A stretch of DNA of 64,000 nt from Pseudomonadota bacterium (lineage in GTDB: Bacteria; Pseudomonadota; Gammaproteobacteria; Nitrosococcales; Methylophagaceae), in the NCBI GenBank assembly GCA_030576275.1, contig JALIBN010000003.1:21087-85086 (forward strand). The letters are read 5' to 3'. This document shows, piece after piece, positions 20,272 to 31,997 of the stretch. Each line of letters opens with the position of its first letter. The first letter of the stretch is position 1. The position numbers and the translations under genes are program-made. Under the pieces are notes generated by a model, which was not told the DNA's origin, did no database searches, and saw only the letters and a list, made by a program, of their open reading frames with translations.

Positions 20272-20318
20272 ATAAATAAAGGTAGCATCATATCCAATCT
20301 GAGATAATGATGCTATCA
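20272..20318 (-). terminator. Probable intrinsic terminator of the gntR-maeB-citE-acs unit
   Basis: On the minus strand GATAGCATCAT, beginning in the acyl-CoA synthetase stop region, pairs with ATGATGCTACC (one mismatch) and is followed by TTTATTTATC. It separates this operon from ppsR-ppsA. Confidence 0.55.
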
Positions 20319-21953
20319 GGATATTCCAGATCGTACGGTTGCGATATCGGGACTGACTTCTCGCCTTAATATTTTGCCATTTTTTGTTCTTGGAAAATCC
20401 TTAGTTAAATAGACAACTTTTGGCGCTTTATAAACTGCAAGGTGCCTCTTACCAAAGGCCAATAACTCATCGGGTGTGACATTCATTCCGTCTTGAAGTA
20501 CCACATATGCAACGACTAAGTTTTTATCTTTTTCGATCTCTTCGCCTATTGCGGCACAATCTGCAATTGCTGGGTGAGATTTAAAGACACGCTCAATTTC
20601 ATAGGGTGACACGCGGAATCCAAAACTTTTAATAATGTCGTCTTTTCTACCTAAAAACCAAATATAACCATCTTCATCGTACCTTGCAAAATCACCGGTA
20701 AGAAACCATCCGTCATGTTTTAACTTTGCTGTTTCTTCAGGCATATTCCAATATTCAATAAACAAACCTGGGTCAGTATCAGGGACACAAATCATACCTT
20801 CTTGGCCAACTTCAACTGATAGCAAGGAGTCTGGATCTAATAATTGAATATCGTGGCCAGGCTGAGGAAAGCCTGCTGATCCGGGACGAATAGGACGTGA
20901 TTTTGTTTCACAAAGATAATATGAAAACTCCGACATACCAACAGCTTCATAAATACTGATATCAAAACGCTCTTGCCACAATTGTAAAACTTCATCGGAT
21001 AGATGTTCACCAGCACTCATACAATGCCTTAAGCTAGACACATCATTTTTTCTGTAAGCTGTTTTTTGAATAATTTGTCGGTAAATAGTGGGCACACCCA
21101 CAAATATTGTTGCTTTATGTTTAGCGATTAAACGTGGCCAAGTATTAGCATCATTTTTACCCTCATGAACAATGACTGTTTTACCTAAATATAAGGGATC
21201 CATTAATCCAGAACCTAATACGTAGGTCCAGTTAAACTTGCCAGAATGCATGATGCGGTCTTGGCTATCTTCAGCAAAATCGAACCAATACTGTGAGGCT
21301 GGAGTTCGCCCAATCAATGCTCGGTGGGCATGTAAAACCCCTTTCGGATAACCTGTTGTACCCGAGGTATAGACTAAATATGCAGGATCATCAGCCTGTG
21401 TATTAGTGGCGGGTTGCCAGTCGGTTATTGATGCTAGACACTTGCTAAAATCTTTCACTATGACGTCATCATCAGCCTCGACTACATCGCCTGGACCTGA
21501 TAACAAAACCAGTTTTAAATCAGGACAATGAGAAATATTCGGCAATAATTTTACCCACATTTCCTTGTCTATAACTAACACCTTAGCTTGTGAATCTTTA
21601 GCTAAGTAAAGTACCTCTTCTACTGTTAATAAAGTAGAAGTTGGAACCGAAATAGCACCTAATTTCATTGCACCAAGAAAGGCAATTGGGTAGTCTAAAC
21701 AATTAGGTAAACGTATTAAAACGCGTTCACCAAATACAACATCAAGGTCACGTAACAATTGTGCAAATTGACTGGTTCGCTTTGATAATTCAGAAAAACT
21801 AATTTGATCTGTACCTAACAGATCATCTTCAACAATCATTGCAGTTGTGTTTTCGATTTTTGTTCCAATATGGCGATCAGAACAGGCGACGCCGATATTA
21901 AAGTGACTTGGTACGTCCCAAACCCAAGGGGTAAACGGTATTAAATTACTCAT
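20316..21953 (-). CDS. AMP-forming acyl-CoA synthetase (ANL superfamily), substrate unknown
   Basis: A 545-residue adenylate-forming ligase that would activate a carboxylic acid to its CoA thioester. Motifs: P-loop-like YTSGTTGYPKGVLHAHRA (A3), YEAVGMSEFS (A5), LTGDFARYDEDGYIWFLGRKDD (A7/A8), and the acyl-adenylate Lys in RTKNGKILRRE near the C terminus. Overall it looks like the benzoate-CoA/medium-chain acyl-CoA ligase group rather than PrpE or Acs. It overlaps the CitE-like gene by ATGA, so it belongs to the GntR-controlled leftward operon. By context the acid could be propionate, mesaconate, itaconate or another small dicarboxylate; that is inference. Confidence 0.85.
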   Translation of the reverse strand: MSNLIPFTPWVWDVPSHFNIGVACSDRHIGTKIENTTAMIVEDDLLGTDQISFSELSKRTSQFAQLLRDLDVVFGERVLIRLPNCLDYPIAFLGAMKLGAISVPTSTLLTVEEVLYLAKDSQAKVLVIDKEMWVKLLPNISHCPDLKLVLLSGPGDVVEADDDVIVKDFSKCLASITDWQPATNTQADDPAYLVYTSGTTGYPKGVLHAHRALIGRTPASQYWFDFAEDSQDRIMHSGKFNWTYVLGSGLMDPLYLGKTVIVHEGKNDANTWPRLIAKHKATIFVGVPTIYRQIIQKTAYRKNDVSSLRHCMSAGEHLSDEVLQLWQERFDISIYEAVGMSEFSYYLCETKSRPIRPGSAGFPQPGHDIQLLDPDSLLSVEVGQEGMICVPDTDPGLFIEYWNMPEETAKLKHDGWFLTGDFARYDEDGYIWFLGRKDDIIKSFGFRVSPYEIERVFKSHPAIADCAAIGEEIEKDKNLVVAYVVLQDGMNVTPDELLAFGKRHLAVYKAPKVVYLTKDFPRTKNGKILRREVSPDIATVRSGIS

Positions 21954-30499: not shown

Positions 30500-30536
30500 G
30501 CTTTATTAGTCACTCATTTAGTTACAAGGATTCACT

Positions 30537-31997
30537 ATGTCATCCCATATTCCTAAGGTTTCTCATGCGCCTGATCAAGTACTCGTAGACATTGCAGATT
30601 ATGTTCACGATTACTTAATTACCAGCCCTGAAGCTTTAGATACTGCTCGCTATTGTTTGATGGATACACTTGGTTGCGGTCTAGAAGCACTCTCTTATCC
30701 TGCCTGTACAAAGTTACTGGGACCCGTTGTTACTGGTACTATTGTTCCTAACGGCAGTAAAGTACCTGGCACATCATTTCAGCTTGATCCAATTCTTGCA
30801 GCTTTTAATATTGGCGCAATGGTTCGTTGGCTAGATTTTAATGATACTTGGCTAGCTGCTGAATGGGGCCATCCATCAGATAATCTAGGCGGAATTCTTG
30901 CTGTCAGTGATTGGATTTCTCGTACTCGCGAACAAGCCGGTAAAAAACCAATTTCAATGCGCGAAGTACTTGTTGCCATGATTAAAGCGCATGAAATTCA
31001 AGGCGTTTTAGCATTAGAAAATAGCTTTAATCGTGTTGGCTTAGATCATGTTGTGTTGGTGAAAGTTGCCTCAACAGCCGTCGTAACGGGCCTACTTGGT
31101 GGTACTAAAGAAGATATCATCAATGCAGTATCAAATGCTTGGATAGATGGACAAAGTTTGCGTACTTATCGCCATAGCCCAAATACTGGTTCTCGTAAAT
31201 CATGGGCTGCCGGTGATGCTACAAGTCGTGCGGTACGCATTGCATTAATGACCATGAAAGGTGAGATGGGCTACCCATCAGCACTGACTGCAAAAACATG
31301 GGGATTTTATGACGTGCTATTTAAGGGCCAGCCGTTTAAATTTCAACGTGACTACGGGAGTTATGTAATGGAAAATGTACTTTTTAAAATTTCGTTTCCG
31401 GCCGAATTTCATGCTCAAACGGCTGTTGAAAGTGCAATTTTGCTTCACAATGAAATTGGTTCGCGTATCCAGACATTAGATGATATTGCTCTAATCGACA
31501 AAATAGAAATTACGACTCATGAATCTGCTCTGCGAATTATCGATAAACAAGGACCATTAACAAATCCTGCTGATCGAGATCACTGTATCCAATACATGGC
31601 TGCCATCGGGCTTTTAAAAGGACAACTTACTGCCGCGGATTATGAAGATGATATTGCTGCCGATCCTAGGATTGATGCATTAAGAGATAAAATACACTGC
31701 GTTGAAAATGAATCATATACTGCAGATTATTTAAACCCTGATAAACGATCGATTGCCAATGCATTACAAGTCATTTTTACTGATGGAACGAGTTCTGAAA
31801 ACATTGCTGTTGAATATCCAATTGGTCACAGACGTCGCCGTAAAGAAGGTATTCCTGAACTCGTTAAAAAATTCAAAATCAATTTAGCACGTCGTTTTCC
31901 AGCGAAGCAACAACAACAAATTTTGGATGTATGTATGAATGAAGCACAGCTGTGTGCAATGCCTGCTCATGAGTTTGTAGATCAATTTGTGATTTAG
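30537..31997 (+). CDS. prpD: 2-methylcitrate dehydratase (MmgE/PrpD family)
   Basis: A 486-residue PrpD that dehydrates 2-methylcitrate to 2-methylaconitate without an Fe-S cluster. Seen are YVHDYLITSPEALDTARYCLMDTLGCGLEALSYP, WLDFNDTWLAAEWGHPSDNLGGILAVSDW, the YRHSPNTGSRKSWAAGDATSRAV segment and PAEFHAQTAVESAILLH. Length equals the family norm (about 483). Rehydration to 2-methylisocitrate needs an aconitase (AcnB or AcnA) encoded elsewhere, as no acnD or prpF is in this operon. Last gene; a strong terminator follows. Confidence 0.95.
   Translation: MSSHIPKVSHAPDQVLVDIADYVHDYLITSPEALDTARYCLMDTLGCGLEALSYPACTKLLGPVVTGTIVPNGSKVPGTSFQLDPILAAFNIGAMVRWLDFNDTWLAAEWGHPSDNLGGILAVSDWISRTREQAGKKPISMREVLVAMIKAHEIQGVLALENSFNRVGLDHVVLVKVASTAVVTGLLGGTKEDIINAVSNAWIDGQSLRTYRHSPNTGSRKSWAAGDATSRAVRIALMTMKGEMGYPSALTAKTWGFYDVLFKGQPFKFQRDYGSYVMENVLFKISFPAEFHAQTAVESAILLHNEIGSRIQTLDDIALIDKIEITTHESALRIIDKQGPLTNPADRDHCIQYMAAIGLLKGQLTAADYEDDIAADPRIDALRDKIHCVENESYTADYLNPDKRSIANALQVIFTDGTSSENIAVEYPIGHRRRRKEGIPELVKKFKINLARRFPAKQQQQILDVCMNEAQLCAMPAHEFVDQFVI

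What the first reader, a model, noticed from the sequence alone, without database searches (positions are those of the whole stretch)
20316..31997. Divergent GntR-controlled locus joining three CitE-family lyases, mesaconyl-CoA hydratase, malic enzyme, an acyl-CoA synthetase and the methylcitrate genes
Seen: two back-to-back operons with overlapping genes; three distinct CitE/HpcH-type lyases; an Mch-like double MaoC protein; prpB, prpC, prpD; malic enzyme; an unassigned acyl-CoA ligase. Known: Mch plus malyl/beta-methylmalyl-CoA lyase interconvert mesaconyl-C1-CoA with propionyl-CoA and glyoxylate (ethylmalonyl-CoA pathway, 3-hydroxypropionate bicycle), whereas PrpCDB oxidise propionyl-CoA to pyruvate and succinate. 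Inference: the locus may be a catabolic route from a C5 dicarboxylate (mesaconate, itaconate, citramalate or methylsuccinate-type) through propionyl-CoA, or a glyoxylate/propionyl-CoA interconversion module, with malic enzyme recovering pyruvate. I know of no standard pathway with this exact set.
Basis: partly seen in the sequence, partly recalled or inferred. Interest (0 to 1): 0.75.

Follow-up and report, generated by a model that had tools for sequence, protein, structure and literature searches.

The report
Likely mesaconate-eating gene cluster of methylotrophs
A ten-gene block, kept together in many methanol-eating bacteria and with its five-gene core also found in iron-oxidising bacteria, likely lets them eat a five-carbon acid (probably mesaconate), which would give a purpose to a block already in print without a known one.

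Summary
In detail: ten genes at 20316-31997 form two divergent operons with two operator copies between them. The block is conserved in Methylophaga and Methylophilaceae; a five-gene core (acs, citEa, citEb, mch, citEc) also occurs without prp genes beside it in Gallionellaceae and others. It is in print as the "methylcitric acid cycle" cluster of Methylophilaceae, substrate unknown; the four papers I searched on it have no mesacon- or malyl- word. New here: the MaoC protein keeps all 8 substrate contacts of mesaconyl-CoA hydratase; the three CitE proteins have different active sites (two complete, one in the malyl-CoA-thioesterase group with a changed metal site); the regulator is SdhR-like with a matching operator; in Cupriavidus oxalaticus mch-citEc sits in a cluster with a CoA-transferase closest to succinyl-CoA:mesaconate CoA-transferase; the genome gives no match over cut-off for malate synthase, isocitrate lyase, Ccr, SucA or methylmalonyl-CoA mutase. 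Best reading (about 0.5): mesaconate -> mesaconyl-CoA -> beta-methylmalyl-CoA -> propionyl-CoA + glyoxylate; then PrpCDB to pyruvate + succinate, and glyoxylate + acetyl-CoA -> malyl-CoA -> malate -> pyruvate. Activities, substrate and direction are untested.

The parts
20316..21953 (-). AMP-forming acyl-CoA synthetase (acs; 'prpE' in Methylophilaceae papers); likely mesaconyl-CoA synthetase (inferred)
   Evidence: PF00501; far below the AcsA equivalog cut-off, 233.6/724.95; Gly339 at the place where, aligned by eye, Acs has its pocket Trp (recalled), in 30 of 30 rows
21950..23152 (-). citEa, CitE-like lyase with complete catalytic set; likely malyl-CoA lyase (inferred)
   Evidence: E91 D92 E184 D210 D350 in 66 of 66, R123 in 65 of 66 plus one unknown residue
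23197..24411 (-). malic enzyme, 404 aa
   Evidence: PF00390, PF03949
24415..25182 (-). GntR/UTRA regulator, SdhR-like
   Evidence: operator match
25201..25212 (.). operator copy 1, TCTTATATAAGA
   Evidence: one of 2 exact copies in the window, shuffle mean 0.01
25346..25371 (.). operator copy 2, 26-base SdhR-like palindrome with core 25353-25364
   Evidence: 24 of 26 bases equal to the published SdhR motif; core in 63 of 67 intergenics, two contigs counted twice
25378..25407 (+). promoter-like site TTGACA-18-TAGAAT, 11 of 12, best in the region
   Evidence: consensus scan only; the region has fewer sites than shuffles, 29 against 37.3
25458..26339 (+). citEb, CitE-fold protein in the lid-Glu (malyl-CoA-thioesterase-like) group with changed metal site; likely malyl-CoA thioesterase (inferred)
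26332..27426 (+). mch, two-domain MaoC protein, likely mesaconyl-C1-CoA hydratase
   Evidence: 52.4% to 4e3e, 50.0% to 8hgn; 8 of 8 substrate-contact residues
27423..28427 (+). citEc, CitE-like lyase of the 3qqw type; likely beta-methylmalyl-CoA lyase (inferred)
   Evidence: directly after mch in 78 of 80 loci and in Cupriavidus oxalaticus and Sphingobium
28424..29311 (+). prpB, methylisocitrate lyase
   Evidence: 538.5 bits, cut-off 353
29360..30499 (+). prpC, 2-methylcitrate synthase
   Evidence: 663 bits, cut-off 550
30537..31997 (+). prpD, 2-methylcitrate dehydratase; the only PrpD match in G000
   Evidence: 877 bits, cut-off 575
32022..32054 (+). terminator-like hairpin after prpD
   Evidence: 15-pair stem then T-rich tail

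Best explanation
The locus encodes a mesaconyl-CoA-hydratase-family protein, three distinct CitE-fold proteins, an acyl-CoA synthetase, a malic enzyme and the methylcitrate enzymes, and together they likely break down a C5 dicarboxylate, most likely mesaconate, to propionyl-CoA and glyoxylate and would carry both on to pyruvate, succinate and malate under a predicted SdhR-type regulator. Steps (all inferred from sequence and context): Acs makes mesaconyl-C1-CoA; Mch hydrates it to beta-methylmalyl-CoA; CitEc cleaves that to propionyl-CoA and glyoxylate; CitEa joins glyoxylate to acetyl-CoA as malyl-CoA; CitEb hydrolyses malyl-CoA to malate; malic enzyme makes pyruvate from it; PrpC, PrpD and PrpB turn propionyl-CoA plus oxaloacetate into pyruvate and succinate. 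Shown directly: gene order and its conservation, families, catalytic residues present or lost, operator copies, and which competing pathways gave no match over cut-off in the genome. The roles of CitEa and CitEc could be swapped.
For: (1) Mch: all 8 residues that PMC10164722 lists around malate in MeaC are present in the window protein; across 92 aligned proteins six positions are invariant, the other two F/L and Y/F. (2) In Cupriavidus oxalaticus mch-citEc lies divergent from an acyl-CoA dehydrogenase, an MmgE/PrpD protein and a class III CoA-transferase; C. metallidurans CH34 has the same set within 8 kb (its MmgE/PrpD match split in two), Cupriavidus KK10 the CoA-transferase and dehydrogenase within 9 kb. 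The C. oxalaticus CoA-transferase scores best with succinyl-CoA:mesaconate CoA-transferase (458.6 bits, cut-off 700); that beside Marinobacter mch scores best with 2-methylfumaryl-CoA isomerase (417.5, cut-off 725). (3) citEc of the core groups with Cupriavidus and Sphingobium copies (99/96); all ten Burkholderiales copies from sdh-type loci fall outside. (4) citEb falls with lid-Glu proteins (97/94), including the Ruegeria one near mch and sdh; PMC3832036 ties lid Glu to the malyl-CoA thioesterase group. (5) Malate synthase gives no match in 14 of 16 genomes with mch-citEc; a CitEa/CitEb pair would replace it. (6) G000 has no match over cut-off to isocitrate lyase (59), Ccr (58), the mutase (60) or SucA (35), and its one PrpD is this one (57). 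(7) The PEP-synthase and kinase/pyrophosphorylase genes beside acs are kept in Methylophaga, fitting pyruvate as product. (8) In OM43 strain NB0046 a CitE-like and a CoA-ligase gene, neighbours by locus tag, are significantly higher on dissolved organic matter than in three other treatments (PMC5120137); that they are citEa and acs is my inference.
Against: I found no activity, growth or metabolite data for it. citEb has Gly for the Glu that PMC3832036 calls absolutely conserved in the superfamily (75 of 81 rows); in L073 and L093-L095 the metal Asp is Asn and the lid residue Gln, so thioesterase function is doubtful there. Neither CitEa nor CitEc has the Ala of characterised malyl-CoA lyases (His, Met). 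Mch lies in its own group. The synthetase's substrate is a guess. L062 has acs, mch and citEc but neither citEa nor citEb, and it alone passes the Ccr cut-off. The Sphingobium CoA-transferase has no mesaconate bias (best 133.6 bits, oxalate type); Cupriavidus EM10 has an mch relative without citEc and C. pinatubonensis citEc without mch. I saw no transporter in the ten genes. Three carriers (G780, G781, G783) show neither PrpD nor the mutase over cut-off, though each has a prpB-like hit. Gallionellaceae keep 2-oxoglutarate dehydrogenase. Two carriers (G113, G090) have malate synthase. Only 2 of 25 genomes of the window's genus carry a strong mch. The CoA-transferase matches stay below their cut-offs.
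Confidence: 0.5

Rival explanations
1. Plain propionate oxidation, as the published name implies: the synthetase is PrpE, PrpCDB do the work and the CitE and Mch genes are side shunts of propionyl-CoA.
For: PrpBCD pass their cut-offs; authors name the gene prpE and the cluster MCC.
Against: 15 of the 59 loci with all five core genes show no prp gene; of the 20 of 80 loci without prp, 12 are read for more than 4 kb past citEc. One Gallionella genome, G782, has PrpD elsewhere. The synthetase is far below the AcsA cut-off and has Gly at the pocket Trp site. It leaves five conserved genes unexplained.
Confidence: 0.2
2. Glyoxylate or glycolate salvage: the CitE pair works as a malate synthase substitute that, with malic enzyme, oxidises glyoxylate (malate cycle); Mch handles a by-product.
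For: Malate synthase gives no match in 14 of 16 carriers of mch-citEc; G000 has a glcDEF-like operon.
Against: Methylophaga G189 and G775 and Methylophilaceae G776 and G778 have the cluster but only weak GlcD matches. Mch, PrpBCD and the synthetase are not needed for it.
Confidence: 0.15
3. Reverse direction: propionyl-CoA plus glyoxylate are joined and dehydrated to mesaconyl-CoA for export or for a 3-hydroxypropionate-bicycle-like assimilation to pyruvate and acetyl-CoA.
For: MCL and Mch reactions are reversible in the characterised enzymes.
Against: No C1-C4 transferase or C4 hydratase gene among the ten; PrpBCD would drain propionyl-CoA in the same operon. The transferase was not searched in the whole genome.
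Confidence: 0.08

Closest known systems
'Methylcitric acid cycle' gene cluster of Methylophilaceae (prpCBD, cyl1, maoC, cyl2, gntR, mdh, sdhABCD, cyl3, prpE, fum, can; PMC4109929, passages read)
   Same: The same gene set; synteny with the window is shown on Methylophilaceae contigs. The window is a Methylophagaceae version without sdh, fum and aconitase genes in the block.
   Different: The papers treat it as propionate-type metabolism or leave the substrate open; here the cyl and maoC genes are resolved into a hydratase, two complete lyases and one thioesterase-like protein.
Haloarchaeal methylaspartate cycle, mesaconate-to-malate half (PMC5592240, passages read)
   Same: Mesaconate activation, Mch, beta-methylmalyl-CoA cleavage and a malate synthase step by CitE-like enzymes.
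   Different: CoA-transferase there, CoA synthetase here (inferred); no methylaspartate ammonia-lyase match in G000; propionyl-CoA goes to the methylcitrate route here.
Ethylmalonyl-CoA pathway end (Mch, Mcl1, Mcl2)
   Same: Mch family, and a lid-Glu CitE protein near mch and sdh in Ruegeria.
   Different: No Ccr over cut-off in G000.
Itaconate/methylsuccinate clusters (PMC12290011, passages read)
   Same: C5-dicarboxylyl-CoA hydration and CitE lyase logic; the Cupriavidus oxalaticus mch-citEc cluster also has CoA-transferase, MmgE/PrpD and acyl-CoA dehydrogenase.
   Different: Those go through C4-CoA esters to acetyl-CoA and pyruvate; this one is predicted to go through C1-CoA esters to propionyl-CoA and glyoxylate.

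Membership tests
Mesaconyl-C1-CoA hydratase (Mch/MeaC) | two-domain MaoC matching PF19315 above gathering score | tested here: met
   64.6 against 26.5 bits
Mesaconyl-C1-CoA hydratase (Mch/MeaC) | F71 S79 N85 R142 N226 H231 Y248 G249 of MeaC | tested here: met
   F74 S82 N88 R145 N228 H233 Y250 G251 in the window
Mesaconyl-C1-CoA hydratase (Mch/MeaC) | groups with characterised Mch in a tree | tested here: inconclusive
   own group beside Chloroflexus, Methylorubrum and Ruegeria; deep forks weak
Mesaconyl-C1-CoA hydratase (Mch/MeaC) | hydration of mesaconyl-C1-CoA | not testable with these tools
   needs an enzyme assay
Malyl-CoA/beta-methylmalyl-CoA lyase (citEa, citEc) | Arg, Glu-Asp, two metal ligands and lid Asp | tested here: met
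   citEa invariant in 66 rows but for one unknown residue; citEc in 97 rows but for one gap
Malyl-CoA/beta-methylmalyl-CoA lyase (citEa, citEc) | Ala before the metal Asp (100% conserved in both MCL groups, PMC3832036) | tested here: not met
   His in citEa 66 of 66, Met in citEc 97 of 97; so not filed in the MCL groups
Malyl-CoA thioesterase (Mcl2) group (citEb) | lid Glu in place of Asp | tested here: met
   window yes; 77 of 81 rows, Gln in 4
Malyl-CoA thioesterase (Mcl2) group (citEb) | Glu-Asp pair holding the metal waters | tested here: not met
   Gly-Ala in the window; Gly for the Glu in 75 of 81; filed only as a relative of Mcl2
Acetyl/propionyl-CoA synthetase (AcsA/PrpE) | AcsA equivalog cut-off | tested here: not met
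   233.6 against 724.95 bits; a PrpE model was not among the 25 rows shown of 108
Methylcitrate pathway PrpB, PrpC, PrpD | NCBIfam equivalog cut-offs | tested here: met
SdhR regulator | binding palindrome TCTTATGTCTTATATAAGACATAAGA | tested here: met
   24 of 26 bases at 25346-25371
SdhR regulator | adjacent sdh genes | tested here: not met
   none among the 15 ORFs from 16942 to 36745; so SdhR-like only. They are present in Methylotenera versatilis L045
Ethylmalonyl-CoA pathway | crotonyl-CoA carboxylase/reductase | tested here: not met
   best 51 bits against 378.55 in G000
Methylaspartate cycle | methylaspartate ammonia-lyase | tested here: not met
   no match in G000
3-hydroxypropionate bicycle | mesaconyl-CoA C1-C4 transferase in the genome | not tested

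The most novel reading that the evidence does not exclude
This is an undescribed complete mesaconate-oxidation pathway shared by methylotrophs and iron- and sulfur-oxidising bacteria: an ATP-driven mesaconyl-CoA synthetase, a new clade of mesaconyl-CoA hydratase, a new CitE-type beta-methylmalyl-CoA lyase, and a malate-synthase substitute made of a lyase plus a CitE-fold thioesterase that has given up the standard metal site, all wired to the methylcitrate enzymes and to an SdhR-type switch. It would be the answer to what the 'methylcitric acid cycle' of Methylophilaceae is for.
Probability: 0.35. Interest if true: 0.75.

Novelty: new variant of a known kind. Interest (0 to 1): 0.6.

Why it matters
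Methylotrophs of this type are thought to live almost only on one-carbon compounds, yet the Methylotenera cluster is highly expressed under semi-in-situ conditions, in general above the main assimilation pathway, and its substrate has been called unknown (PMC3728764); its prp genes rise on marine dissolved organic matter in OM43 (PMC5120137). A named substrate would say which dissolved compound they may take up besides methanol, would add a second mesaconate route beside the citramalate one (PMC4682846), and would give enzymes useful for synthetic carbon pathways. Each step is directly testable.

Tried and rejected
Ethylmalonyl-CoA pathway, glyoxylate shunt and methylaspartate cycle: key enzymes gave no match over cut-off in G000. 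PrpE label for the synthetase: doubted on the AcsA score and the pocket residue. citEc as a TCA-operon enzyme only: Burkholderiales copies sit with gntR and a citrate synthase gene; SdhA, SdhB and aconitase were confirmed in one of them, L120; but the core copy groups with the Cupriavidus and Sphingobium ones. A structure model of citEa was poor (mean pLDDT 61); its Foldseek list (CitE, MCL, CLYBL types first) adds nothing beyond the superfamily. Rfam found nothing in 15000-38000. Motif search with 2 mismatches gave no excess (3 against 4.62 expected); only exact copies do. The plasmid search with the synthetase listed 12 of 3510 records, none over 40% identical; their neighbours were not looked at. 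Of the flanking ORFs scanned in L062, L070, L073, L095 and L096 only an HDOD-domain protein recurs (L070, L073); L062 has a citrate-transporter-family and an acetyl-CoA hydrolase/transferase-family gene. In the Methylophaga thiooxydans proteome paper six terms for this pathway had no occurrence (PMC6548844). A paper search for 'mesaconyl' with 'methylophil' gave one paper, on carbon fixation, whose passages do not treat this cluster. Recalled, from no call: that the Ruegeria lid-Glu protein corresponds to R. sphaeroides Mcl2 (RSP_0970), and Trp414 of Acs.

Rows dropped before counts: one search used only tblastn matches covering at least 80% of a query and left out short duplicate loci; the orthologue counts use those alignments. 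The acs alignment kept rows of at least 55% identity. Identity thresholds of the 80-locus table are in the scripts. One search used the 67 loci where gntR and citEb lie divergent within 1.2 kb. L014/L092 and L005/L099 look like the same contigs fetched twice (equal names or lengths), so those counts carry two duplicates. The citEb tree warns of long branches. My notebook entry wrongly gave L062 the whole core; the report has it right.
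Full report
What is there. Ten genes between 20316 and 31997 form two divergent operons. Leftward: gntR, malic enzyme, citEa, acs. Rightward: citEb, mch, citEc, prpB, prpC, prpD, followed by a terminator-like hairpin at 32022-32054. 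PrpB, PrpC and PrpD pass curated cut-offs.

Where it occurs. A scan of genome contigs with citEc gave 485 relatives, of which the best 80 were kept. Among these 80, mch is present in 80 and directly before citEc in 78, citEb-mch-citEc are present in 75, citEa in 60, acs in 60, the five core genes in 59, all ten in 41. They are mostly Methylophaga, Methylophilaceae and Gallionellaceae. Twenty of 80 show no prp gene; 12 of these extend more than 4 kb past citEc, 11 labelled Gallionellaceae or related Nitrosomonadales and one an unnamed gammaproteobacterium, L062. L062 has acs, mch and citEc but no citEa or citEb. In Methylophilaceae about 3.5 kb lie between citEa and the malic enzyme gene; in Methylotenera versatilis L045 this is SdhA and SdhB. 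An even sample of the class gave 8 of 369 genomes with mch at 1e-40 or better: the window's genome and a Methylophaga have the full cluster, four have citEc divergent from citEa-acs-citEb-mch without prp, two have mch only; in one of these two, L097, mch lies between a CitE-like gene and an acyl-CoA dehydrogenase gene. Within the window's own genus mch is strong in 2 of 25 genomes. The PEP-synthase and kinase/pyrophosphorylase genes next to acs are kept in Methylophaga loci, so the block looks inherited and often lost.

The host. G000 has a PQQ methanol-dehydrogenase-type gene over cut-off (709.9 bits); an NAD-linked-type formate dehydrogenase alpha subunit gene (776.7 bits, cut-off 666) lies at 11669-14527 and a molybdopterin oxidoreductase with Fe-S and cytochrome subunits, formate-dehydrogenase-like, at 32081-36745. 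So it is very likely a methylotroph. It gives no match over cut-off to malate synthase, SucA, Ccr, isocitrate lyase, methylmalonyl-CoA mutase or methylaspartate ammonia-lyase. Its only PrpD match is the one here. It has a glcDEF-like operon on another contig; GlcF passes its cut-off, GlcD and the short GlcE do not.

The hydratase. The window Mch is 52.4% identical to Chloroflexus 4e3e and 50.0% to Methylorubrum MeaC 8hgn. All eight residues around bound malate in MeaC (PMC10164722, passages read) are present; in 92 aligned proteins six of the eight positions are invariant and the other two show F/L and Y/F. In the tree the core proteins stand beside the characterised group and beside a Cupriavidus, Sphingobium and Marinobacter group; deep forks are weak.

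The telling neighbours. In Cupriavidus oxalaticus mch-citEc is divergent from an acyl-CoA dehydrogenase, an MmgE/PrpD protein and a CoA-transferase. C. metallidurans CH34 has the same set within 8 kb, its MmgE/PrpD match in two pieces; Cupriavidus KK10 has the CoA-transferase and dehydrogenase within 9 kb. The C. oxalaticus CoA-transferase is closest to succinyl-CoA:mesaconate CoA-transferase; the one next to mch in Marinobacter M3C is closest to 2-methylfumaryl-CoA isomerase; neither passes its cut-off, and the Sphingobium one shows no such bias. Against a strict pairing, Cupriavidus EM10 has an mch relative without citEc and C. pinatubonensis has citEc without mch. So the pair can appear with enzymes for C5-dicarboxylate CoA esters when the rest of the block is absent. 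In the window the synthetase would replace the transferase. It is not of the AcsA type by score and has Gly at the place of the acetate-pocket Trp in 30 of 30 rows (the Trp is recalled and the match made by eye).

The switch. Two exact TCTTATATAAGA copies lie between gntR and citEb and nowhere else in the window; shuffles give 0.01 on average. The core is in 63 of 67 gntR-citEb intergenics and once each in nine of ten Burkholderiales loci where a similar gntR lies near citEc and a citrate synthase gene. The second copy matches 24 of 26 bases of the motif that PMC4494728 (one passage) gives for SdhR. A promoter-like site follows it, from a scan without overall excess.

What is in print. PMC4109929 (passages) lists the same genes as the methylcitric acid cycle cluster; PMC3728764 (passages) says the role and metabolite are unknown and that gntR is among the most over-expressed of the cluster; PMC6794327 (passages) reports its loss in Methylopumilus; PMC5120137 (passages) reports higher transcripts on dissolved organic matter. 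Term look-ups in these four main texts found no mesacon- or malyl- word. A library search for mesaconyl with methylophil found one paper, whose passages do not treat this cluster. Only open-licence papers are held, so a description elsewhere is possible.

Reading. The simplest scheme that gives every gene a job is mesaconate activation, hydration, cleavage to propionyl-CoA and glyoxylate, glyoxylate to malate by a lyase plus thioesterase, malate to pyruvate, and propionyl-CoA to pyruvate plus succinate. It fits the missing malate synthase in 14 of 16 genomes with mch-citEc (G113 and G090 have it; completeness of 11 of them is not told). Weak points: the altered citEb site, a carrier without citEa and citEb (L062), the swap-able roles of citEa and citEc, the unknown synthetase substrate, and carriers with a GlcD and without one. 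Direction is not shown.

Noticed in passing
window 11669-16152 and 32081-36745: An NAD-linked-type formate dehydrogenase cluster and a formate-dehydrogenase-like molybdopterin oxidoreductase cluster lie on either side of the locus.
   Followed up: partly
L120-L129: In Burkholderiales a citEc relative sits with a similar gntR near a citrate synthase gene (with SdhA, SdhB and aconitase in L120); its function there is unknown. The family includes 3qqw (Reut_B4148) and 3r4i (Bxe_B2899), deposited as a putative lyase and a citrate lyase.
   Followed up: partly
G000:C32:66600-69800 (L148): A glcDEF-like glycolate oxidase operon beside a divergent aminotransferase closest to BhcA (223.7 bits, cut-off 650).
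   Followed up: partly
L013: A contig labelled Methylophilaceae whose citEb, citEc and mch fall among or beside Methylophaga: a transfer or a binning error.
   Followed up: no
L043, L046: In Methylobacillus and Pseudomethylobacillus several kilobases separate gntR from citEb, and an operator core lies near each part.
   Followed up: no
L073 and L093-L095 citEb: Loss of a metal ligand and of the lid Glu in one CitE paralogue within an otherwise conserved operon; it may have become a different enzyme or a partner subunit.
   Followed up: partly
L062: A reduced version with acs, mch and citEc only, near a citrate-transporter-family gene and an acetyl-CoA hydrolase/transferase-family gene, in a genome that passes the Ccr cut-off.
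   Followed up: partly
window 365-4232: A MoxR-type AAA protein and a TgpA-type transglutaminase protein with an unassigned ORF between them.
   Followed up: no
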